A DNA stretch of 64,000 bases from positions 1,612,001-1,676,000 of the forward strand of contig NW_025791658.1 in assembly GCF_921293095.1 (NCBI RefSeq), written 5' to 3'. Made by a program: the position numbers and the translations under genes. This DNA is from Ischnura elegans (lineage: Eukaryota; Arthropoda; Insecta; Odonata; Coenagrionidae). The notes under the pieces were generated by a model. That model did no database searches, was not told the origin of the DNA, and saw only the letters and a program-made list of their open reading frames with translations. Of this stretch, positions 2,432 through 58,614 are shown piece by piece (position 1 is the stretch's first letter; every line of letters begins with the position of its first letter).

Positions 2432-2563
2432 ATGAATCATGTCATCGATCATACTATGTGTAGATTGTGCCTATGTAAAGGCCGATTGTTTAACATTTTT
2501 GAAGACCATGTTGAAGTTAAATTCACTGTGAAGGCTGTGATTGAGGAACTGTTGCAACTAAAG
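2432..2563 (+). CDS. Gene 1 exon 1: first half of ZAD domain
   Basis: This first coding exon belongs to a ZAD C2H2 zinc-finger protein, a class of arthropod nuclear DNA-binding factors in which the ZAD mediates dimerisation. It starts at an ATG with a favourable A-rich context and encodes 44 residues. The first zinc-binding cysteine pair appears as CRLC (Cys-x2-Cys), followed by the helix region FTVKAVIEELLQLK. A textbook donor GTAAGTG begins at 2564 and leaves phase 0. Gene 2 exon 1 (55941-56072) has exactly the same length and phase. The second cysteine pair is in the next exon. Confidence 0.88.
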
Positions 2564-2763: not shown

Positions 2764-2934
2764 GTGGAGAAGGAAGTCCTATATCCTTGGATGGTATGCC
2801 GCAATTGCTTGAATAAGTTATTTGATTTTATAATGTTTAAACGGCGATGCATGGAGAGTCAGCTGGTATATGACAACAGAATCAGGAAGAAAAAGTTTTC
2901 AAAGGGAAAGAGTCGAAAATCTGGAACCAAATTG
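2764..2934 (+). CDS. Gene 1 exon 2: second half of ZAD domain
   Basis: A 200-bp intron ends in TCTATAG and this exon continues in phase 0. It encodes 57 residues. The second ZAD cysteine pair is visible as VCRNC in YPWMVCRNCLNKLFDF, followed by the typical long helix containing FKRRCMESQ. A lysine/arginine-rich tail (RKKKFSKGKSRK) could be a nuclear localisation signal. The donor is GTTAGT at 2935, less canonical than the others. The spacing between the two cysteine pairs across the junction fits the ZAD family. Confidence 0.86.
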
Positions 2935-5716: not shown

Positions 5717-5827
5717 GTGTCGGCCATGGAAGTTGATGGCAGCACGCAGGAGCAAGTCTCAGAGGATAAAGAGAATAATTCCTCCCCACTGGAAGCTGTG
5801 GGACATATCAAAGTAGAAAATGATTCT
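5717..5827 (+). CDS. Gene 1 exon 3: acidic linker
   Basis: This 37-codon exon lies between acceptor TTTCAG and donor GTAAGTATT, in phase 0 at both ends like the neighbouring exons. The peptide begins VSAMEVDGSTQEQVSEDKEN and ends HIKVENDS. It is acidic and polar, and IKVE matches the sumoylation consensus (hydrophobic-K-x-E) often found in ZAD zinc-finger linkers. It joins the ZAD to the downstream region. Assignment to the same gene rests on strand, phase and composition; no transcript is available. Confidence 0.72.
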
Positions 5828-14579: not shown

Positions 14580-14756
14580 TTGACCTCTGAACCTGAGATC
14601 GCTTCTGCATCGGTGCCATTAGCCAGCATTACCAATGTTCCTCGAAGTATATCTTCGCAAGCACCCCTCAGGACTGACCAAAGGTCTCCCAGCGTTGAGG
14701 GGGATTCGGCGACAAGTCAAGCAGCAATGCAAGATCCTCTTGATGTGAGTGAGATG
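14580..14756 (+). CDS. Gene 1 exon 4: Ser/Pro/Thr-rich linker
   Basis: The acceptor is CACCTTTTTCAG at 14579. The exon is open in phase 0 for 59 codons (LTSEPEIASASVP to DVSEM). The peptide is low in hydrophobic residues and rich in Ser, Ala and Pro, as expected for a disordered linker between a ZAD and zinc fingers. Two GTGAGT donors lie 12 nt apart, at 14745 and 14757, and both keep phase 0, so the exon may be 55 or 59 codons. Membership in gene 1 is inferred from strand, phase and composition. Confidence 0.62.
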
Positions 14757-23290: not shown

Positions 23291-25684
23291 CCGTATTTTC
23301 CGGCGTATAAGACGACTTTCTAGCACCTAAAATCTTTTTTAAAAAGTCGGGGTCGTCTTATACGCCGGGAATGTGGCAGCAAGGAGGAGGGGTGGCCGCA
23401 CTGAACAAACACTTCACACATTTGCAGAACCCTAACCCTAACCCAGTGCTGAGATCTAATATACCAGGCTTTGTGAACTTCCATGTTAAAAGGAGGCCAA
23501 GGGAGAACCAAGCAAGACAATTAAACCAACGGTCGGAGGCACTTCAACACAATCAGCAGAGGACAGTTGTGAATGCAATGCATTAACAGGCGCGTGAGCA
23601 CGGAATATAAATCAGACAACTGGCTTTAACACTGACATACGAAGCAAAAGGCAGTACACTACCTCCCATTCGAAATATGGGCACCACACCCCGAAACACT
23701 ACGATGGTGCTTCATTTTCACTTTATAAAATTAAAGACATCACACGGATCACGAGAGCTCCTGACTTGCCAAGACAACGAATTCAAAACGTGGTCACGTG
23801 GTAATAACGGCCGTGGGGCCACGTGAGCTCTACGGAAACCCTCCCCTACTTCCCCCTTCCACTCTCACCTCCCCTACACCTTTCAATATTTCTCTCAGAT
23901 GGCGTTGGTGCAAGCTACCCGGAAGCCCCATAAGAGATCGCACTGGTTGTAATATACCGTATAAATGCCAAACAGTCAAGGCCCCAACATGGCTCCACTA
24001 ACAAGAAGAAAGAAATATGAAGCCAGTTTCAAACTAAAAGTTGTAAACTTTGCCATGGAACATAATAACTGCGCTGCTGCAAGACATTATGGAGTAACAG
24101 AAAAGATGGTTCGTGACTGGAAAGCAAACGAAAAAGCACTGAAGAATATGCCAAGGGGTAAGTGTGCATTAAGAAGAGGCACCCCACATTGGCCAGAACT
24201 CGAAAAACATGTAGCAGACATGGTGAATGAGCATCGCCAAAATGGTTATGTTGTAACACGCAATAAAATATGCTTGTTTGCACTTCAGTGGGCAAAATCT
24301 AATCCAGATCACAGCAACAGATTTAAGGCCACTGTATCCTGGTGTACTAGATTCTTAGAAAGGCACAATTTGGTACTGAGGCAAAAGACAAAAATTGCAC
24401 AGAAATTACCTGCAGATCTTGATGCCAAATTAAATAACTTCCATCGATACGTAATAAAACAGCGCAATAAACATGGCTATGCGTTAAATAGTATCGGAAA
24501 TATGGATGAAACCTCAATGAATTTTGATATGGTTGGAAATAAGACTGTCCATCTAAAAGGTGAAAAAACTATTTTAATTAAAACAACAGGACATGAGAAG
24601 TCCAGTTTTACAGTGGTACTAGCTTGCACAGCTGATGGCGCCAAACTGAGACCAATGGTTATTTTTAAAAGAAAAACAATGCCGAAACTCAAGTTCCCTG
24701 TTGGTTGTTTTGTACATGTGAATGAAAAAGGCTGGATGGATGAAGAAGGGGTAAAGCTATGGCTTGATAACGTATGGAGCAGGCGACCAGGTGGACTTAT
24801 TAAAAAACGTAGCCTACTGGTGTGGGATATGTTCAGGGCTCATTTAACTCCCAGCACCAAGGAAAGGCTTGCGAGACTAAATACAGATTCAGCAGTTATT
24901 CCTGCAGGATTGACATCATTGGTACAGCCACTGGATGTGTGCCTAAACAAGCCGTTTAAAGATCGCATTCGAGAACAGTGGAATGAGTGGATGGTTAGCG
25001 GTGAGAAGTCATTCACAAAAGGAGGAAACATGCGTGCTCCACAGTTGGATGTTTTGTGCAAATTTGTTATAAAAGCCTGGAATGACATTGATGCAAAAAC
25101 AGTAATCAAGTCTTTCAAAAAGTGTGGCATATCAAATTCGTTAGATGGTATGGAGGACGACTACTTGTGGCAAAATGAAGAGGAAGTCGAAGCTGAGACC
25201 ACACCATCTGATACGGAATTTGATCCATATGATGATTGCCTTACAAATGTAGAACAAGACGTTATTGATGTACTAATGATATCAAATGACGAACAGGAGG
25301 ATTTTAAAGGTTTTTAAATGGAAACTGCGTTGCTGACTCGCAGTGACTTGCGAGCTCTCTCTATCGTTTGTTAACTTCCTTGTATCAGACTGCTTTAGGA
25401 AAAGTTTAATCCACTTGCACTGTTTTAGTTTTATATGTTTTATGAGGAACTGACTTATGTTTATTAGTGACCGTTTTCATGCTATCATGTCATGCCATGA
25501 TGTCATAAGCATATTAATTAAAAATTTCTATATTGAAATCAAATCTGATGTTTTTTATTTACCGGTAGTGTGCGTTGGAAAAGGGGTAGTCTTATACGGA
25601 GAGTATAGCACGAATTATATATTTTAACAAAAAAGTTGGGGGTCGTCTTATACGCCCAGTCGTCTTATACGCCGGAAAATACGG
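23291..25684 (+). mobile_element. Complete pogo-like DNA transposon, 2394 bp
   Basis: The first 27 bp (starting CCGTATTTTCCGGCGTATAA) are a perfect inverted match to the last 27 bp. TA duplications lie at 23289-23290 and 25685-25686, inside family A copy 7. A second copy of the GGTCGTCTTATACGCC core lies about 50 bp inside the left end (23349) and 20-40 bp inside the right end (25640), as expected of subterminal transposase-binding sites. A single long ORF (23965-25317) encodes the transposase. With intact ends, target duplications and ORF, this is the youngest-looking autonomous element here. Confidence 0.94.
23965..25317 (+). CDS. pogo-like transposase (DD35D), intact
   Basis: A 450-residue transposase for cut-and-paste movement of the surrounding element. 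Residues about 14-60 form a helix-turn-helix (KKYEASFKLKVVNFA ... GVTEKMVRDWK). Residues about 70-135 resemble the CENP-B-type second DNA-binding domain (ending FKATVSWCTRFLERHNL). The DDE_1 core shows Asp181 in NMDETS, Asp288 in VWDMFRAH and Asp324 in QPLDVCLNKPFK, so the last two acids are 35 residues apart and all three are Asp. The C-terminus is acidic (EDDYLWQNEEEVEAE, then DEQEDF). A second in-frame ATG at 23989 (MAPLTRRKKY) is an alternative start. There is no stop or frameshift, and the length is normal for the family. Confidence 0.95.
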   Translation: MPNSQGPNMAPLTRRKKYEASFKLKVVNFAMEHNNCAAARHYGVTEKMVRDWKANEKALKNMPRGKCALRRGTPHWPELEKHVADMVNEHRQNGYVVTRNKICLFALQWAKSNPDHSNRFKATVSWCTRFLERHNLVLRQKTKIAQKLPADLDAKLNNFHRYVIKQRNKHGYALNSIGNMDETSMNFDMVGNKTVHLKGEKTILIKTTGHEKSSFTVVLACTADGAKLRPMVIFKRKTMPKLKFPVGCFVHVNEKGWMDEEGVKLWLDNVWSRRPGGLIKKRSLLVWDMFRAHLTPSTKERLARLNTDSAVIPAGLTSLVQPLDVCLNKPFKDRIREQWNEWMVSGEKSFTKGGNMRAPQLDVLCKFVIKAWNDIDAKTVIKSFKKCGISNSLDGMEDDYLWQNEEEVEAETTPSDTEFDPYDDCLTNVEQDVIDVLMISNDEQEDFKGF

Positions 25685-39165: not shown

Positions 39166-39349
39166 ATAAGGCCAGGGAAATTAAGAAATTTCTGGGAAAA
39201 TCAGGGAAAAGTTGAGGAAAAAAAATTGGTCGTGTGTAGTTGTGTTGTACAAGTTTTCGAGTACTTGCACATCCTTAGATAATACGTAATAAGTTAAATC
39301 GTTGGAAAATTCACTGATTCTTTTCATCTTTCTAGGAGGGATACTGCAG

Positions 39350-41530
39350 TCTTGTGACAGTGAAAGTGGGTTCCTGAGTTCCAGATGGAAGACAATAAAA
39401 TCAGAACCTGACAGGCCGTCCAGGACTCAGTCTTCCGATTCAGAGGAGTTAGACGTTGGAAGCCCAAAGATAAGGATAAGCGAAATCAGCATCGGCGGAG
39501 GAGGTTTATCGTGTGGAGGCGGAGAATGTGAATGGGAAGCTAACACGTTATCAAATGAAGCGTCTCCGTCTGAGTTGGAGGGTCAAGAGGAAAGGTCAGA
39601 TGGGTGCGGTAATGGTGAAGGGGTGAATTCAGTTGGAAATGAGGAGGGAGATTCGAAAGATAAGGTGGCGGAGTGGATAAACATGGACCGTTTCGCTCTG
39701 GAGAAGATTGCCGACTGTGATAATTGCATTTCTGTGATTAGCAGCGATGACGAATTGTACGAAGACTTCATCTTGGAGGATTCGGAAGGGTCTGGCAATG
39801 AAACTGATGTCTTACGAGGCGATCTAGATGGTGCTGGAAGAAATGTCTCTTCAATCTTGTGCACGGAGAGTCTGGAAGGCTTCGTGTCGAGTGAAGAGTC
39901 CATATTGCGGGAAGGGTCGTGCGAAGCGTACAGTTCTAAAGGAGTCGAGGGTATAGATTCCTCACATAGGGGCACGCACGGTTGTATATGTTTCAACACG
40001 GGTAGAAATGGTTTGCAGGTGGAGGACAGTGTGATGGAAAACAATAATGATAACGCCAATCGGATCTGTGCCTCATCAAGCAGGAGTTTGTCTGGTGCAT
40101 GCGGATCGCTTGCAGAAGCAGCTGGGCAATATACTGACACGGATGAAAATTGTTCAAGGATGGCCAACCCTCTGGATGAAAACAATGAGGACAGTGGCAG
40201 TTTGATTAATGCCACCTTGCTTAGTGCCAGTTTGATAAGTGCCTCGTTAAGGTCAAGATTTTCCCAGCATTGCATTCGTCGTACGTTTAATTGCAGAGAA
40301 TGCAGCAAAACTTTTGCAAGTCAATCTGCGTTAGTGATACACCAGGAGAAAGAATGTTTTCATAGGAAAATTAGTGAGACTTTTTTGATGATTTTATCCC
40401 CAAACACAAATGAATCTGGGTCGAATAGTTTGGATGGGCGTGAGACGAAACCACTTGGCCATGATTCTTTGGTTATGGGCCCAGGATCTCAGGCTGTAGT
40501 GCCTGCTGAATTGGGTACGATACGGGTTTTGGGTGGAGAAGCAGACAATCGCAATGTCAACGGTGTCAGTAGTGGGAACTGCGACTCGACAACGGACATT
40601 CTCTCCGCTCCAAAGTTGCGCATTGTGTTGTTTAAATGCAAAGATTGTGGCGAAACCTTCCGGGGTAAAGATTTGTTTTTGGAGCACAAGAAGAAGCACG
40701 TACGTGCGAAGAAACGCAAAAGGAAGCGTAACCGCCCAGAGCGAAACGCCTCGAATGGTTTTAATGGCAATGTTAGGGATCCAGACATGGTGCTTGGATT
40801 TGACGCGGGTAACGACGACGACATTATTTTCGTGTCTGCCTCTGCTGGGATCTCCTACGACTCGCCGCTATTTTGGTGTGAAATGTGTGGCTCACAGTTC
40901 AAGACGAAGTCAACTTTGGACTTCCATTGCCAGAGTCGTTGCATGGGAAGGGATGCGAATTTGGCCCACAAGTGCGATACGTGCGACAAACGTTTCTCAC
41001 TGCGCAGTACGTTGGAACTGCACATGAAGTACGTCCACGTCCAGAATCAGAAGAGGAAAATCTGTCCGACTTGCGGGGAGTCGTTCAAGAGAATGCGATC
41101 TCTGAGGAGACATGACGTGACTGTTCACATGGACAATGAGCTCTTGGAACGATCGTGTACAGTTTGCTGGATGACCTTTAACAGCAGGTGTTCCCTGAGG
41201 AGTCACAAGTTGAAGGTGCATCCCAAAAGGAAAAACACAAACTCGTCAAAGAGGAAATGTGTCGGGATACGAGAGAATAAGCCTTACTTTTGCGGACTTT
41301 GTTCGAAAACGTTCTTTCTCGAGTCGTCCCTGAAAGATCACCTGGAGAAGCACAAGCGCAGCGGCTCCCACCATTGTTTGGCGTGCGGGGAGAAGTTCAC
41401 GAGGCTGGCTGCATTGCGTCTGCACCAATCCTTCCACTCGGAGCTGTTCTGCAAAATTTGCAACCGTTTCTTTGGAGGAAAGGCTTCTCTGGATCGTCAT
41501 ATGCTGTCCCACGTGAGGCAGAATAAATGA
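39350..41530 (+). CDS. Gene 1 terminal exon: acidic region and nine zinc fingers
   Basis: The last coding exon encodes 726 residues to the TGA at 41528. The acceptor ATACTGCAG at 39341-39349 keeps phase 0; an alternative TTTCTAG at 39335 would need phase 1. The first ~310 residues are acidic, Ser/Gly-rich and probably disordered, with IKSEPD as a likely sumoylation site. Fingers follow at about 40286, 40631, 40870, 40967, 41057, 41153, 41284, 41369 and 41443. The first is irregular, the third is C2HC and the rest are C2H2. A basic run RAKKRKRKRNR after finger 2 is a likely nuclear signal. With exons 1-4 the protein would have about 923 residues, a DNA-binding nuclear factor. Confidence 0.88.
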   Translation, partial: SCDSESGFLSSRWKTIKSEPDRPSRTQSSDSEELDVGSPKIRISEISIGGGGLSCGGGECEWEANTLSNEASPSELEGQEERSDGCGNGEGVNSVGNEEGDSKDKVAEWINMDRFALEKIADCDNCISVISSDDELYEDFILEDSEGSGNETDVLRGDLDGAGRNVSSILCTESLEGFVSSEESILREGSCEAYSSKGVEGIDSSHRGTHGCICFNTGRNGLQVEDSVMENNNDNANRICASSSRSLSGACGSLAEAAGQYTDTDENCSRMANPLDENNEDSGSLINATLLSASLISASLRSRFSQHCIRRTFNCRECSKTFASQSALVIHQEKECFHRKISETFLMILSPNTNESGSNSLDGRETKPLGHDSLVMGPGSQAVVPAELGTIRVLGGEADNRNVNGVSSGNCDSTTDILSAPKLRIVLFKCKDCGETFRGKDLFLEHKKKHVRAKKRKRKRNRPERNASNGFNGNVRDPDMVLGFDAGNDDDIIFVSASAGISYDSPLFWCEMCGSQFKTKSTLDFHCQSRCMGRDANLAHKCDTCDKRFSLRSTLELHMKYVHVQNQKRKICPTCGESFKRMRSLRRHDVTVHMDNELLERSCTVCWMTFNSRCSLRSHKLKVHPKRKNTNSSKRKCVGIRENKPYFCGLCSKTFFLESSLKDHLEKHKRSGSHHCLACGEKFTRLAALRLHQSFHSELFCKICNRFFGGKASLDRHMLSHVRQNK

Positions 41531-41605
41531 TAAAATTGTAAGGTTCTGTATGGTACCAGATGCATGGCGCAGTTCTTTTACTTGTTATTATGCATATTGA
41601 AGGTT

Positions 41606-42725
41606 AAGCCTGAATCACACGATCATTTTTTTTCGTCGCGAAAGTGATCACTATCGCGAGCACTGGGCAAAATGATCGTCGGCGGCAATAGGGTGGTTTC
41701 CTTCATCAAAGAAAACGAAAGGCATTGATTGCGATTCGTTACCCACCAATAGTGTATTCATAATATACAAATTATTTTGTTTTAGAAATACCGGGTTAGA
41801 CGAATGGCAATGGTCCATTTTTATCCTCATTTGAAAAGGGCCAGATTGGCGCCCATGCGATGCCACTCCACGTGACGTCACAGGGACCTAGTTTCTATAC
41901 GAGAAGATAGGAGTTATACGTCGTCTGAGGTTACCATTGCATGCATGAGGCGCAGAGCTCAGGGAAACATGTCTTAACAATCACTTATTAAAACTGGCTA
42001 AGGTCGGAAAGTTTTCCTCGTTTGATAAGTTATTAATAATCCTTATTTAAGCCAAGAGCTACCAGCCAGCAGGGTACTAGGCTAGCCGCTAGCAGCCTGC
42101 GTCGTATCAGCGCTAAGCCTCGCCTCAAGGTCACCTCGCAGGGCGGGAGGGGGAACCAGAAATACGTCACGCGGAGAGACTTCCCGACATTCATACTTAA
42201 GCGTCGCGTTTTCGCGCGCTTGAAAATTTTCACTTTTCATTTAATCGCGGAAAATAGATATCGTCATTTAAAAATCTAAAAGCGTGAAATACGTACTCCA
42301 GGAGTAATAATCTTTCGATTTAGGCAATAAAAAAATAATAGGAAACCACCCTATTGTTTTTCGCGATCGCGATGTGGATTCTCATCGCTATTTTTCATCA
42401 CTCGTCCGGTCGCTTTTTCCGTCGCTAAAACCGTCACTAAAACCCCATATCAGCCAGTCGGAACGCATTCCCCTATGGAGCAATTGCAGTGCAACGTTTG
42501 ACAATTGTGGGAATGACATGGATAAACAAACACGCTATATAATTTCGTGATGTGGGTCCTATGACAACGAGCTGTGATATTGGAAATGATGCGAAAAGCG
42601 ACGGCGGGAGTGACCGTGTTATTCAGAAAAATGATCACAAGAGCGATTGCTTTTCGCGACGGGAAAAGTGATCTCGATAGTGATCACTTTCGCGACGAAA
42701 AAAAATGATCGTGTGATTCAGGCTT
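41606..42725. mobile_element. Element G, long-TIR element containing family A copy 12
   Basis: The left end AAGCCTGAATCACACGATCA and the right end (complement AAGCCTGAATCACACGATCA) are inverted repeats of about 45-60 bp rich in TCGTCGCGAAAGTGATCA. No clear target duplication is visible. About 450 bp of its own sequence flank the nested MITE. It lies 75 bp past the stop of the nine-finger exon, so it may sit in the 3' UTR. Class unknown. Confidence 0.75.
41689..42353 (+). mobile_element. MITE family A, copy 12 (full length)
   Basis: Starts TAGGGTGGTTTCCTTCATC and ends GGAAACCACCCTA, inside element G. It has intact CACGTGACGTCA at 41869-41880. Confidence 0.9.
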
Positions 42726-42729
42726 TATA

Positions 42730-43330
42730 CAGTAGATTCCGTTTAATGGCTTTAATGGTTACTTGGGGCAGCCGCTTAATTGGGGGAGATCTAGTAGAAC
42801 AGAACCCAATAGAGGAATATCCCAGAGTACTCTCCGCTTAATTGGGACAGCATGCCGCTTTATTGGGCCATGAGTCGGCGACAAAGACTCTATGCTTGCG
42901 ACTAAATTAAAATTTTTTGTTTTCAGAATACTATTTTTTTATATTTTCCTCCTTTGATTTACTCTTATTTTTCACAATTGTTCCTATTCTTGCCCTATTT
43001 TGAAAGCTCTTGTTGTTATACTATCCGCAAGAAGATAGGATGTTTCTTTTACAGGAGTTGGTAAAAGACATTCATTCTGCATCGCCCGAGGCTGTGAAAA
43101 AAATATTCTTAACTGAATTATTATAATTCTTAAAAATTATAATAAATTAACTAAACTCGCATATCTATTAATCAAATTAATAGTTTAATAAACTTATGTT
43201 GCATTATAAACATTCCTTAGTCTTCTTTCGATCATTTCAACGTTTGATTATGCCCGATGTACAGGATAGTTCGCTTAATTGGGGCAAAGTGCACAAATCC
43301 CGATATATCCCAATTAACCAGAATCTACTG
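42730..43330. mobile_element. Element H, TA-flanked MITE
   Basis: The ends are CAGTAGATTCCGTTTAATGG and (complement of the right end) CAGTAGATTCTGGTTAATTG. TA lies at 42728-42729 and 43331-43332, and the second TA is also the left duplication of element B copy 2. GCTTAATTGGGRCA is repeated near both ends. There is no coding sequence. A related fragment lies at 55070-55218. Confidence 0.82.
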
Positions 43331-43332
43331 TA

Positions 43333-44097
43333 CAGTGAGTCCTCGTTCTACGTCACCCCGTTTAACGTCATTTCGCGATAACGTCACGAAAATTTTGAGA
43401 CCGTCATTCGTTTATCGCACCTTCGCTTCGCGATAACGTCAAGTCTTTTAAATTTCGCTCGAAAAAAAGGCAAAGTGGCGGGCGTTGCAGGTTGTTCGTT
43501 TTGTGGGCGGTAATACAGTCAGTCTAAGCAAAGTGTAAAACGGTGTGTTTAGTCTTAAATGCGATTACGGTTTTAGCAAAAATTTATGCAAAATGAATTC
43601 TTAGGTAGGTGCGCAAGGTTTTACTTGCAATAATGGTTTTCAGGAACCTAAAAAGTGATTTCAAGGCATTTTTCCATGTAGAACTCGGAGTTTTTGTCAT
43701 CACTTTTTTGCCGAGTTCACAATAATTTTGGTTCCTGTAACTATGACGATGTTTCAGCGATGATGATGCCTAGGCGACGCTCGCCCGGGCGACCACCATA
43801 GCGAAGCCGAAAAGCAAATGCGGGAAGATACAAAGATGGAGAAGGATTTACGTCAGTGCTGCTATTGTCGTCGATGAAGACAGGAACTCGTATTTATGCC
43901 ATAGCTTGGCATTCCCATCGTAAAAAATGCCCCAGATATGATACGCTAAAATTTTTTCGCTTAGGAATTGTGAGGTCTAGGAGCCGATATTCACTTTTTA
44001 CATTGTTTCTTATGGGATGTTATGCTTCGACTAACGTCATTTCGTTTATCGTCACATTTTTCAGGAACGGTATGTGACGTTAATAGAGGACTCACTG
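43333..44097 (+). mobile_element. Element B, copy 2
   Basis: CAGTGAGTCCTCGTTCTACG to AGAGGACTCACTG, with TA at 43331-43332 and 44098-44099. It has an internal difference (about 43590-43720) relative to copies 1 and 3. Confidence 0.87.
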
Positions 44098-44126
44098 TAT
44101 TAGGTAGTTCACGGTAGAAAAGTTTA

Positions 44127-44360
44127 TTGGAAAGTCTTGATCATCAGCGTAACCGAGAAATATATGAATTAAAAGATGTTGACGATGGCATTTACACACT
44201 TTTAAATCTAGTTCATAAGTCATTCCATGGCTTCTTTCCAAACTTGGTATATGCTGTAGAGGGGCTCACTCTAAAGAACAAGGTATGCCGGAGAACACAT
44301 CAAACAAATGACGTCACAGCTCTGAGAATATGGCCGACTGGTGTTTCAGCGTATCATTAA
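44127..44360 (+). other. Open segment of unknown function
   Basis: A 77-residue open frame (containing LVHKSFHGFFPNLVYAVEGL) begins just after element B. I do not recognise it. It has no splice-flanked context and could be a gene or transposon fragment. Confidence 0.2.
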
Positions 44361-44693
44361 TTTTGCAAATTTTAATACATAATTAATATCTCACTTAAAA
44401 AGTACCTCTCTATTCTCAGACTCGGAATTTAGCCTAATTGAGATTATTTTTTTTTTAAGATCACTTCCCAAAAACGTGCACATACTCCATTCTGCAGACG
44501 TTCAAACTGAAACGTGCATAAACTTAAAATACGTATATTTTTGTTTTCACAACCCCTAAAATTAGCTAATTTCAATGAATGTATTTTCCTTAACAACCTT
44601 TAGCAATGAATCATAGGCAAATAACTTGAAGATAACTTATTATTATTATATTGGAGGATTTTAACCCTTGACCAGTGATGTGGAATTCTTGTT

Positions 44694-45372
44694 ACACTAT
44701 CCGTGACCTGGTGGGTATGGTATACCCACCAGGATGAGCGTTAGGTGCGATATTAATAAATTGTGGAATTTTAAGATAAACGGTTCAAAATTGTGAGTTT
44801 TACGGCTTTCTGAAGGATATTTCATTAATCCTTACACTCTTCTATTAATAAGGTAAAACCTCTATGTAGTGAACCTCTTTACATCATAAACCTCCATACT
44901 TGATACCATCCCTTACGGTCCCGTATGATTTACATGTAAATTTATAGGCAAACCTCCATGTAATGAACCTCTTTATCTCGTAAAACCTCCACTTACCATA
45001 CCAAGGAGACACCCCCGAGACGGCCTTAATACCTCTGTAAATCATAGCGAGACAACTAGAGACCATTAATGCAGCCACGATTACCTACATGAAATGACAT
45101 TTTCAGCGATAAATGTTTCATTCTTACTTTTTTCCTTATACACCTTTAATACACAGTAATTTAATTAGTACACAGAATTGTGTCAGGATGAATAAAATAT
45201 CCCTCAGAAAGCTGTAAAACTCACTACATCGAACCATATATTTTTAAAATTCCGCAATTTATTAATATCGCACCTACTGCTTACCCTGGTGGGTATACTA
45301 TACCCCCACACACACCGATATTGGTTGCACGTAAACTCCTCCCCAGCCTTAATTCCTAGCTGTGCCCCTGCT
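44694..45372. mobile_element. Repeat L with inverted arms, split by family C
   Basis: Arms near 44694-44840 (GGTGGGTATGGTATACCCACC, GAAGGATATTTCATTAATCC) and 45183-45372 (complementary) face each other. The right terminus reads CCTTAATTCCTAGCTGTGCC. A similar terminus occurs at 36350 and, in reverse, at 54098. Family C occupies 44851-45178 in the middle. Confidence 0.6.
44851..45178 (+). repeat. Family C dispersed copy
   Basis: Starts GTAAAACCTCTATGTAGTGA and carries the CCAAGGAGACACCCCCGAGA flank, followed by the tail seen at 20890 and 38945. Confidence 0.78.
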
Positions 45373-45506
45373 TCCACATGCTGAAGACCAGGACCCTAGG
45401 AACCCTTCGGTCCCAAGCTTTCCGGATTTGAGGTCCTCAACTGTAATAAGTTAAATTGTTGGAAAATTCACTGATTCTTTTCATCTTTCTAGGAGGTGAA
45501 CAGCAG

Positions 45507-46532
45507 TCTTTTGACAGTGAAAGTGGGTTCCCGAGGTCCAGATGGAAGACAATTGAATCAGAACCTGACAGGCCGTCCAGGACTCAGTCTTCCGATTCAG
45601 AGGAGATAGACGTTGGAAGCCCAAAGATAAGGAGCAGCGAAATCAGCATCGGCGGAGGAGGTTTATCGTGTGGAGGCGGAGAATGTGCATGGGAAGCTAA
45701 CACGTTATCAAATGAAGCGTCTCCGTCTGAGTTGGAGGGTCAAGAGGAAAGGTCAGATGGGTGCGGTAATGGAGAAGGGGTGAATTCAGTTGGAAATGAG
45801 GAGGGAGATTCGAAAGATAAGGTCGTGGAGTGGATAAACATGGACCGTTTCGCTCTGGAGAAGACTGTCGACTGTGATAATTGCATTTCTGTGATTAGCA
45901 GCGATGACGAATTGTACGAAGACTTCATCTTGGAGGATTCGGAAGGGTCTGGCAATGAAACTGATGTCGTACGAGGCGATCTAGATGGTGCTGGAAGAAA
46001 TATCTCTTCAATCTTGTGCACGGAGAGTCTGGAAGGCTTCGTGTCGAGTGAAGAGTCCATATTGCGGGAAGGGTCGTGCGAAGCGTACAGTTCTAAAGGA
46101 GTCGAGGGGATAGATTCCTCACTTAGGGGCACGCACGGTTGTATATTTTTCAACAAGGGTAGAAATGGTGAGCAGGTGGAGGGCAGTGTGATGGAAAACA
46201 ATAATGATAACGCCAATCTGATCTGTGCCTCATCGAGCCGGAGTTTGTCTGGTTCATGCGAATCGCTTGCAGAAGCGGCAAGAATCAGCGAAGGTGAAAA
46301 TTATGCTAGGGAAGACATTGCTGTGAGTAATGAGGACAGTGACAGTTTGATAAGTGCTCCATTAAGGACGAGATTTTCTAATGGTCAATATCTTTCTTTG
46401 TTTAGTTGCAAATATTGCTATGAAACGTTTAAAAGGCATCACGTGCTTGTGAAACACATGTGGAAACACACTTTTGAGAGGGGACCTCCTTGGGAGTTGT
46501 TGTTCTTAGAAAAAAAGAACTCTATTACATGA
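45507..46532 (+). CDS. Duplicate terminal exon: acidic region plus a single zinc finger
   Basis: Nearly identical to the start of the 39350 exon over about 257 codons with no indels, including the upstream intron from about 45442 and a CAGCAG acceptor at 45501-45506 in phase 0. The sequences diverge after LAEAA (about 46280). They briefly realign around EDSDSLISAPLR and then part completely. Here a single C2H2 finger follows (CKYCYETFKRHHVLVKHMWK, ending KH) and the protein stops at 46530, 341 residues in all. It could be an alternative last exon of gene 1, a truncated duplicate gene, or an early pseudogene. The open frame argues against old decay. Confidence 0.68.
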   Translation, partial: SFDSESGFPRSRWKTIESEPDRPSRTQSSDSEEIDVGSPKIRSSEISIGGGGLSCGGGECAWEANTLSNEASPSELEGQEERSDGCGNGEGVNSVGNEEGDSKDKVVEWINMDRFALEKTVDCDNCISVISSDDELYEDFILEDSEGSGNETDVVRGDLDGAGRNISSILCTESLEGFVSSEESILREGSCEAYSSKGVEGIDSSLRGTHGCIFFNKGRNGEQVEGSVMENNNDNANLICASSSRSLSGSCESLAEAARISEGENYAREDIAVSNEDSDSLISAPLRTRFSNGQYLSLFSCKYCYETFKRHHVLVKHMWKHTFERGPPWELLFLEKKNSIT

Positions 46533-55940: not shown

Positions 55941-56072
55941 ATGCCCATCAAAACGATTGACAACTTGTGTCGGATATGTGTCCAAGAGAGTGGTGCCTAC
56001 ATGCATATTTACGACCAATCCATCCTGGACATCCGCTTGTCCGAAGTTATCAAGGACCTTTGCCAGCTGAAT
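55941..56072 (+). CDS. Gene 2 exon 1: first half of ZAD domain
   Basis: This first coding exon of a second ZAD gene encodes 44 residues from the ATG at 55941. The first cysteine pair is LCRICVQESGAYMHIYDQS, with the helix LSEVIKDLCQLN at the end. The donor GTACGTAAG at 56073 leaves phase 0. Length and phase equal gene 1 exon 1, and the residues align around C-R-x-C and the final hydrophobic helix, so the two genes are paralogous at least in this domain. Confidence 0.88.
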
Positions 56073-57705
56073 GTACGTAAGAATAAATATTATTTATTGT
56101 CATTAATTTATCGTTCGATAATTCAGTTTGCCTGGGATTGATTGCTCTGTCCACAATTGCTGAAGTTACAACTGAATTAATTCGCTACCGCATTATATTT
56201 ATTGATTTGTAGCTCCTTCCAATGTATTATCTGCGTTACGGTGGTCTTTTTTACTGCCATGGAGAGATCATTTCTTTCAATGACCACTGTTTAAAACGAA
56301 TGAAAAGTTTAGTTTTTTCGCGAGATTATTCACGATTTTAGCGCAACCGATTCCGCCTTTTTTTTTTAGATCTATTACTTCTTAATAGAACCACTCTCCT
56401 CTGAGTTAAAGTGCTCGCTGATGTTGGCATTGGGAGTTTTTCGACGTACATAAATTATGTTTTATAATAGTCCGCAAAATTGGAAAATTTCAGCATCTGC
56501 GAGGATCTCACTGCAAAATAAAATCGAAAACCTAGCATTGTATGTGAGTTTCTGATTTTAAAAGTTTGCCAAATTCCATGCGATTCCATGTTATTCGTTG
56601 TATTTTTTTTCTAGTGTCATGATTCTTATGTAACTAGATGTATTCCTTGCATCTGCAAATATGTGGACCATTGTTGTGATATACATCAATCCCGTCTCGT
56701 GAGATGAAATTTATCTATTTGGGAAACTGAAGCTCTATTCTTTACATAAAGAACTCCACAGCCAACTTGATATTTCTTTAGAAGTTTACGTATCGTTAAT
56801 CCAGAACCCATCAGTAACAATGTTAACCAAGTTGCTTGTGTCTTGGACAGTTGATATGAACCCTATGCATGAAAGGTAACAGCCCTGCCTCAATTCCCCT
56901 TCGGCATCAAGTGATTCTGTCCTTATTTCCTAAATGATCTACCAGGTACTCTTAAATCTGTTGCAGAGACACTTTAGGGAAGTCCCTGCTAAATGGATTC
57001 CACAGAAACTTAAGCAAATGAAGCCTGGTTGGGGAGATGTCAAAAAAAATTGCTGATATTTTATCAGGGACTGTTTGGTTTCCTCAGGACCACCAAAGAT
57101 GACAGCAGAAAAAGTTGCATTATGTAACCCTTAAATACTGGTGTGGGGTGTAGAACTGAGCCATGCTAAGGGTTATTAATGTTTTTTTTACATCTAAGCC
57201 TGTCAAGCACGTAGCGCCTGAACTCAGCAATTCCAATATTGCGCCTGACGAAAGGCTAGAGAAATGGATGTTAGGAGGTTTTCTTTAGCACCAATAATAA
57301 TGCAGTAGTCTTGTTAACACAAACAATCATATTACGAAGTTCCCCTTTTTACGAAGCAAATCGTTGGTCCTGACGAAAAGGCTAATCTAATCTAGGGTCA
57401 ACTAGCGAGAGATGCCGCACATTTTGTAAAATAACTATATTTTGTCCCATTTTGATTAAACTAAGTTGTAGACATGGTGACTAGTCTCGTTTCTGACCTA
57501 CAAACAAAAACGTATGCTTATATCATTCTTCTCTTAGCTGTAAGAATTATTTTTGTAAAACATTTCCTCATAATGTCTATCCCGTATGTTGCCGGTGACC
57601 CCTTTAAGGGTGACAAGCCACATGTTATTAAAACTAACCTAAAACGATTTCTGTATTCTGCAGCTCCAATAAAAAAGAAAAAATTTCGAACTATTGAAAT
57701 TTTGA
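56073..57705. other. Gene 2 intron 1, unremarkable part
   Basis: AT-rich, no recognised element. A small motif TTACGAAGTTCCCCTTTTTACG near 57333 resembles the subterminal sequence of element I but has no matching partner. Confidence 0.4.
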
Positions 57706-58293
57706 TGTTGTTGTTATAGTATTCTACCGATTAAGGTAGGTTTCCATGGAGTACTAAAGAAGTGATCTGGGAGCCTCCCTTTCCTTCCAGCGCTACCTTC
57801 TTCAATTCACTGTAAGGCCTACTCCCTTTCAATCTATCTAAAAATCCTATTCTTTTCCTTCCCCTCCCTCATTTCCCTAACATTCTACCCTCTAACACCA
57901 TTTTCAACATCCCCTCCCTGCTAAGTAATTGCTCCATCCATACATTGTCTCCTCCGTATCTCATCTAAAGGCTGCCTCTCCTCGCCAACCATATCCAGCA
58001 CTTTGTCGTTCCTTTTCCTCTCCGTCCATTTCACCCTCTCCTTTCTTCTCCATACCTACATCTCGAATGCCTCCAATATACTCTCGTCATCTTTCCTCAA
58101 TGTCCACGTTTCTGCACCATAGAGCACTACACTCCAGATCAAACTCTTCACTAACCTTTTCTTTAAACTCTTACATAACGATCCTCTCAGAAGCTCCTTC
58201 CCGTTCATGAACGCCTCCTTTGCTAATGCAATTCTCTTTCTAATGTCCTTACTACTGTATCTGTTTTCCTCCAACGTACTGCCTAAATAAACT
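57706..58293 (-). pseudogene. LINE reverse transcriptase tail, 5' truncated
   Basis: Minus-strand copy of the LINE at 1-860. It retains YLGSTLEENRYSSKDIRKR through VLYGAETWTLRKDDE and the 3' end, and breaks off at about 58293, a typical 5' truncation. Frameshifts follow the first 72 residues. Its 3' tail is CTATAACAACAAC on the minus strand, a short repeat tail like those LINEs leave. Confidence 0.85.
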
Positions 58294-58479
58294 CCTCTAT
58301 GGATGGTGTCAAAATAATTTCCTTAAACTGATCTTCTTGCCTGGTTAGCACGTTTTCCTGGATAGTACATTCATTTTTTACGGTCCCTTCAGAAATGTAA
58401 TAAACAAGTTTTACTGTATTATTGTTGTTGCATACTTGTTGATGATGCAAATGGCATGAATGTCTGTTTTATGTTGCAG

Positions 58480-58614
58480 TTGCAAGCGGGTGACGGCCTG
58501 CCAGAGTACGTTTGCCAAAGCTGTCACAGTAAGGTGGTGGAGTTTCACAAGTTCAAGCAGATGAGCCACGAGGGTGCAACTGCTCTTCTCAGCATCAAGA
58601 AGAAGCTGGACGAA
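58480..58614 (+). CDS. Gene 2 exon 2: second half of ZAD domain
   Basis: The acceptor is TTTTATGTTGCAG (58479) and the donor GTAAGT (58615), phase 0 on both sides. It encodes 45 residues: LQAGDGLPEYVCQSCHSKVV, then EFHKFKQMSHEGATALLSIK and KKLDE. VCQSC is the second zinc-binding pair of the ZAD, and the following helix is long and charged as in the family. Intron 1 is 2.4 kb here against 0.2 kb in gene 1. Confidence 0.88.

What the first reader, a model, noticed from the sequence alone, without database searches (positions are those of the whole stretch)
39285..46532. Two tandem last exons share an acidic region but carry different zinc-finger ends
The exon at 39350 (nine fingers) and the exon at 45507 (one different finger) share about 257 codons and the preceding ~65 bp of intron, including an equivalent phase-0 acceptor, on the same strand 6.2 kb apart. 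If both are spliced to the upstream ZAD exons, one locus would give proteins with one dimerisation domain and interchangeable DNA-binding ends. That is the logic known from Drosophila lola and mod(mdg4), but built here by last-exon duplication. The alternative is a dead or separate duplicate.
Basis: partly seen in the sequence, partly recalled or inferred. Interest (0 to 1): 0.72.

Follow-up and report, generated by a model that had tools for sequence, protein, structure and literature searches.

The report
Truncated duplicate last exon, ZAD-zinc-finger gene
A damselfly transcription-factor gene carries a second, shortened copy of its final exon 6 kb downstream; the copy keeps the spacer region and a degraded zinc finger, so if it is used at all it would more likely make a nearly finger-less partner protein than a protein that reads different DNA.

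Summary
The two exons are real. They share 50 bp of intron edge, the splice acceptors and 258 codons (30 of 774 bases differ), found at two places only in the 1.72-Gb genome, probably Ischnura elegans. The upstream ZAD exons are real. Three details change the reading. (1) Exon B's finger is not a different finger: the tails are homologous and B's finger sits in the register of A's first finger, so B is a shortened copy without A's other eight fingers. (2) The copies have two ages: synonymous divergence is 0.05 in the shared head and 0.57 in the tail, which fits an old duplicate whose front was recently overwritten by gene conversion. No ZAD exon for B was found. B's frame stayed open, but present selection on it is not shown. 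Best reading: a candidate alternative last exon giving a ZAD-acidic form with one weak finger, comparable to truncated cucoid isoforms. A dead duplicate is nearly as likely. No RNA evidence was available.

The parts
2432..2563 (+). ZAD exon 1 (44 codons), donor GTAAGT
   Evidence: read; donor score 8.0; zf-AD 41.1 bits with exon 2
2764..2934 (+). ZAD exon 2 (57 codons)
5717..5827 (+). predicted linker exon 3, phase 0 at both ends
   Evidence: splice scores; only its own place in the genome
14580..14756 (+). predicted linker exon 4; donors at 14744 and 14756 (phase 0) and a weaker one at 14748 (phase 1)
39286..39335 (+). intron edge before exon A, shared with B (1 of 50 bases differs)
39336..41530 (+). 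last exon A: acidic spacer and nine fingers; strong acceptor at 39336 (phase 1), weak one at 39350 (phase 0)
39350..40123 (+). head of exon A: 258 codons shared with B
40286..40366 (+). finger 1 of exon A (C2HC spacing) and following residues
45443..45492 (+). intron edge before exon B
45493..46532 (+). exon B: truncated copy; strong acceptor at 45493 (phase 1), weak one at 45507 (phase 0)
45507..46280 (+). head of exon B: 258 codons shared with A
46281..46482 (+). diverged tail of B, homologous to A 40124-40366
46401..46481 (+). single C2H2 finger of B (15.6 bits, below Pfam cut-off 25.2) and following residues
46533..46538 (+). AATAAA directly after the stop codon of B
55941..58614 (+). first two exons (55941-56072, 58480-58614) of the next ZAD gene, a separate unit
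   Evidence: zf-AD 61.3 bits

Best explanation
Gene 1 is one ZAD-C2H2 transcription-factor gene whose last exon (A) encodes an acidic spacer and nine fingers. Exon B is an old, truncated tandem copy of that last exon whose front (intron edge, acceptors, acidic spacer) was recently made like A's again by gene conversion. Because it kept the same acceptors and frame, it can be joined to the same upstream ZAD exons as a distal alternative last exon. The product would keep the dimerisation domain and the acidic spacer but have one weak finger, and so should act as a dimerising partner with little DNA binding of its own (competitor or cofactor form), not as a second DNA specificity. Shown: the duplication, homology of the tails, the two ages, no trace of fingers 2-9, matching acceptors. 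Inferred: gene conversion as the cause, splicing to the ZAD exons, function.
For: Two copies only, same strand. No ZAD exon found near B. The 25 bases before the strong acceptor are identical in A and B (99.3rd percentile). Head dS 0.052 against tail dS 0.57 (P 8e-8 on rounded counts). The tail kept an open frame (chance 0.04 to 0.13 without selection) and a net in-frame length difference; the five signature positions that the two fingers share are all among the 11 of 27 identical residues (P 0.006). AATAAA directly after B's stop. Precedent: ZAD gene cucoid with alternative last exons and isoforms lacking C-terminal fingers (PMC6783274, PMC9810180, passages).
Against: No RNA evidence. Head changes fit neutral drift (21.5 nonsynonymous, 8.5 synonymous) and tail dN is about equal to dS (0.58, 0.57), so no purifying selection is shown. 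An open head is unsurprising by chance (0.24 to 0.45). B's finger is under the Pfam cut-off. The exon that supplies a phase-1 donor is not identified. The paralogue shows no second last exon in the 12 kb after its first.
Confidence: 0.47

Rival explanations
1. Exon B is a dead partial duplicate: transcription ends at A's poly(A) site or splicing takes A's acceptor, and B is never or hardly ever joined. Its open frame is luck plus recent overwriting by A.
For: Neutral-like changes in the head and dN about dS in the tail; chance of an open head 0.24 to 0.45; gene conversion can restore an open head without any selection on B; weak finger; truncated end.
Against: The old tail has no stop (chance 0.04 to 0.13) and keeps the finger signature (P 0.006); acceptor context intact.
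Confidence: 0.4
2. One reading: interchangeable DNA-binding ends on one dimerisation domain, as in lola and mod(mdg4).
For: One set of ZAD exons, two last-exon copies with matching acceptors.
Against: B carries one diverged finger in the place of A's finger 1 and none of the rest; a single finger seldom gives specific DNA binding (general knowledge).
Confidence: 0.07
3. Exon B belongs to a separate small gene with its own promoter, starting for example at the internal ATG at 45840.
For: An in-frame internal methionine (WINMDRF) is present in both copies.
Against: B keeps a strong acceptor, which a first exon does not need. Promoters were not tested.
Confidence: 0.06

Closest known systems
cucoid, a ZAD-ZNF gene of culicine mosquitoes (PMC6783274, PMC9810180; passages read)
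   Same: ZAD gene; alternative last exons; shorter isoforms that lack C-terminal fingers, one of them the localised maternal form
   Different: The passages do not describe the alternative ends as a duplicated last exon; expression and function are shown there, not here
lola and mod(mdg4) of Drosophila (recalled; only search listings seen)
   Same: One shared N-terminal dimerisation part with several possible 3' ends
   Different: BTB instead of ZAD; many ends with distinct DNA-binding domains; here two, the second a shortened copy of the first
Gr39a of Drosophila (PMC2204066; abstract read)
   Same: Alternatively spliced large exons with duplications, pseudogenisations and losses
   Different: Gustatory receptor whose alternative large exons are spliced to small conserved exons, not a duplicated final exon of a transcription factor

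Membership tests
ZAD-C2H2 (ZAD-ZNF) transcription factors | N-terminal ZAD (zf-AD) | tested here: met
   41.1 bits, cut-off 28, on four joined predicted exons
ZAD-C2H2 (ZAD-ZNF) transcription factors | C-terminal C2H2 fingers: exon A | tested here: met
   zf-C2H2 82.2 bits, 5 stretches; nine by pattern
ZAD-C2H2 (ZAD-ZNF) transcription factors | C-terminal C2H2 fingers: exon B | tested here: inconclusive
   complete C2H2 spacing, but 15.6 bits against a cut-off of 25.2
Gene with alternative last exons | Second terminal exon with a usable acceptor on the same strand | tested here: met
   acceptor at 45493, 99.3rd percentile (consensus score only)
Gene with alternative last exons | Transcripts that join both ends to the shared exons | not testable with these tools
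   no RNA data for this genome
lola/mod(mdg4)-type locus | Ends carry distinct DNA-binding domains | tested here: not met
   B's only finger is a diverged copy from the same exon
lola/mod(mdg4)-type locus | BTB domain as the shared part | tested here: not met
   the shared part is a ZAD; no BTB among the Pfam matches

The most novel reading that the evidence does not exclude
The locus encodes its own ZAD-dimerising, nearly finger-less antagonist through a duplicated last exon. Gene conversion keeps that exon interchangeable with the full one at the splice acceptor and acidic spacer, while its DNA-binding part has decayed; and this sits on the scaffold that may carry the damselfly female colour-morph locus.
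Probability: 0.25. Interest if true: 0.55.

Novelty: new variant of a known kind. Interest (0 to 1): 0.3.

Why it matters
If B is used, a transcription factor would have gained a built-in competitor form by partial duplication of its final exon, with gene conversion preserving the splice-compatible part; that gives a simple test of how ZAD factors obtain isoforms. If B is not used, it is an ordinary partial tandem duplicate in a repeat-rich zinc-finger region.

Tried and rejected
Selection on the shared 258 codons: 21.5 nonsynonymous and 8.5 synonymous changes; simulated neutral evolution gives means of 21.5 to 23.8 nonsynonymous, so dN/dS cannot decide between live and dead. Search for an exon ending in phase 1 between 14757 and 39335: 4 candidates after masking local repeats, 8 unmasked at other thresholds, none with a convincing counterpart among candidates of the next ZAD gene or the paralogue. 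Remnants of fingers 2-9 after B: none convincing within 48.8 kb of the window (beyond the tail and finger only weak hits, E 0.6 or more). B as a recent copy with an accelerated tail: rejected, as synonymous divergence differs 11-fold. B's tail as a piece of another gene: A is the next best match in the genome (E 0.0016), the rest look like generic fingers (150 of 311 candidates scored). Which A finger is B's relative: bases shared 43 of 69 with finger 1, 42 with finger 2, 26 to 32 with the other seven; the protein score slightly favours finger 2 (61 vs 57); position and spacing favour finger 1. Indels in the tail depend on the aligner: MAFFT gives 6, 6 and 30 bases, cheaper gap costs give small unequal gaps; I rely only on the net difference of 42 bases before the finger. 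Literature: nine searches; the listings of those on ZAD isoforms and exon duplication (39, 41, 42, 46, 47, 60; the top rows only) showed me no ZAD gene with a duplicated last exon, which is not proof that none is in print. Five papers were opened, each in part: PMC10781644 (passages and section 10), PMC9975421 (part 1 of 2), PMC6783274 and PMC9810180 (passages), PMC2204066 (abstract and outline).

Full report
Where it is. The window is C15:1612001-1676000 of a genome of 1,722,721,009 bases in 110 contigs. Ischnura elegans ioIscEleg1.1 is published as 1,723 Mb in 110 scaffolds with a chromosome 13 of 21.32 Mb (PMC9975421, part 1 of 2 read), and C13 has a match near 21.297 Mb. I take the species as I. 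elegans; this is inference. C15 is 11.87 Mb. From its place in the contig list it may be unlocalised scaffold 2 of chromosome 13, whose first ~1.5 Mb in another assembly hold the female colour-morph locus (PMC10781644, passages and section 10). That link is not verified; the window lies at 1.61-1.68 Mb, and coordinates differ between assemblies.

The gene. On the + strand there are ZAD exons at 2432-2563 and 2764-2934, predicted linker exons at 5717-5827 and 14580-14744/14748/14756, and last exon A ending at 41530. The four joined upstream exons score 41.1 bits against zf-AD (cut-off 28). Exon A has nine fingers by pattern; Pfam's zf-C2H2 passes in five stretches. The next ZAD gene starts at 55941 (zf-AD 61.3 bits).

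The duplicate. 39286-40212 matches 45443-46357 at 92.7% over 927 columns. In 258 ungapped codons 30 of 774 bases differ; the 50 bp of intron before the TAG differ at one base, and the 14 bp between the two AG sites at four. DNA and protein searches of the genome give only these two places for the shared part. The linker exons match only themselves. For the finger part of A, the 50 other matches at E <= 1e-6 are at most 39% identical (99 of 1373 candidates scored).

The finger. The DNA of the two tails aligns through the finger (score 92.5; best of 200 shuffles 44.0 or 37.5, by the stretch of A used). The finger starts 13 residues after a shared RFS motif in both. B's finger shares 43 of 69 bases with A's finger 1, 42 with finger 2 and 26-32 with the other seven; the protein score slightly favours finger 2 (61 vs 57). 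By position I call it the counterpart of finger 1. B ends about 16 codons later, and no convincing remnant of fingers 2-9 was found downstream. So B is a shortened copy, not an exon with an unrelated DNA-binding end.

Two ages. Head: dS 0.052, dN 0.039 (258 codons). Tail: dS 0.57, dN 0.58 (67 codons). The difference at synonymous sites is significant (P 8e-8 on rounded counts). An old duplicate whose front was recently overwritten, most simply by gene conversion, explains this; a fusion of a new front to an old tail would look the same.

Is B alive? Changes in the head look neutral, and an open head is unsurprising by chance (0.24 to 0.45). The tail says a little more: no stop despite its age (chance 0.04 to 0.13), a net in-frame length difference, and the five signature residues shared by the two fingers all among 11 of 27 identical residues (P 0.006). 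Against this, tail dN is about equal to dS. The tail was probably coding for much of its history; that does not show that B is used now.

The splice sites. The strong ones are intron phase 1: out of phase with exon 4 donors 14744 and 14756, in phase with the weaker 14748. A paralogue on C15 (ZAD exons near 5,473 kb, nine-finger last exon near 5,432 kb, minus strand) has its best last-exon acceptor (score 4.3) also in phase 1, before DGIT where A has GGIL (aligned by eye). A weaker acceptor (1.6) lies 22 bases further in the paralogue. I therefore favour 39336 and 45493, with the partner exon unresolved. Either acceptor pair would serve A and B equally. In the 12 kb after the paralogue's last exon no second finger exon was seen by pattern; tblastn gave one weak match there (E 0.12).

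Reading. The best explanation is a candidate distal last exon that would give a ZAD-acidic form with one weak finger. The nearest precedent is cucoid, a ZAD gene with alternative last exons and isoforms that lack C-terminal fingers (PMC6783274, PMC9810180, passages). A dead duplicate is almost as likely. RNA data would decide.

Noticed in passing
39336-39349 vs 45493-45506: The 14 bp between the two acceptor AGs differ at 4 of 14 sites, against 30 of 774 in the codons that follow (P 0.002) and 1 of 49 as entered for the intron edge (P 0.007) (post hoc).
   Followed up: partly
G000 contigs C13, C14, C16, C17: ZAD matches are concentrated on these contigs: of 146 matches (a capped list, counted by eye), 12 lie on C1, C2, C6, C8, C10 and C11, 8 on C15, and the rest on C13, C14, C16 and C17.
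   Followed up: no
L025:2493-4554 (C14:8738493-8740554): Two near-identical ZAD first exons lie head to head in an inverted repeat (616-nt arms, 95% complementary, 830 nt apart). Several other ZAD matches come as opposed pairs at about 1.6-1.7 kb.
   Followed up: partly
C15:5431955-5473284, minus strand: A paralogue of gene 1 with ZAD exons 45-54% identical and a nine-finger last exon about 41 kb away, a gene span like gene 1's.
   Followed up: partly
41687-42356: A repeat of about 670 bp with six further copies of over 650 bp in the window; here it lies inside a stretch bounded by inverted repeats at 41606-41664 and 42667-42725, between exons A and B.
   Followed up: no
23965-25317, +: A 450-codon open frame in the long intron that looks like a Tigger/pogo-type transposase (recalled resemblance; not tested).
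   Followed up: no
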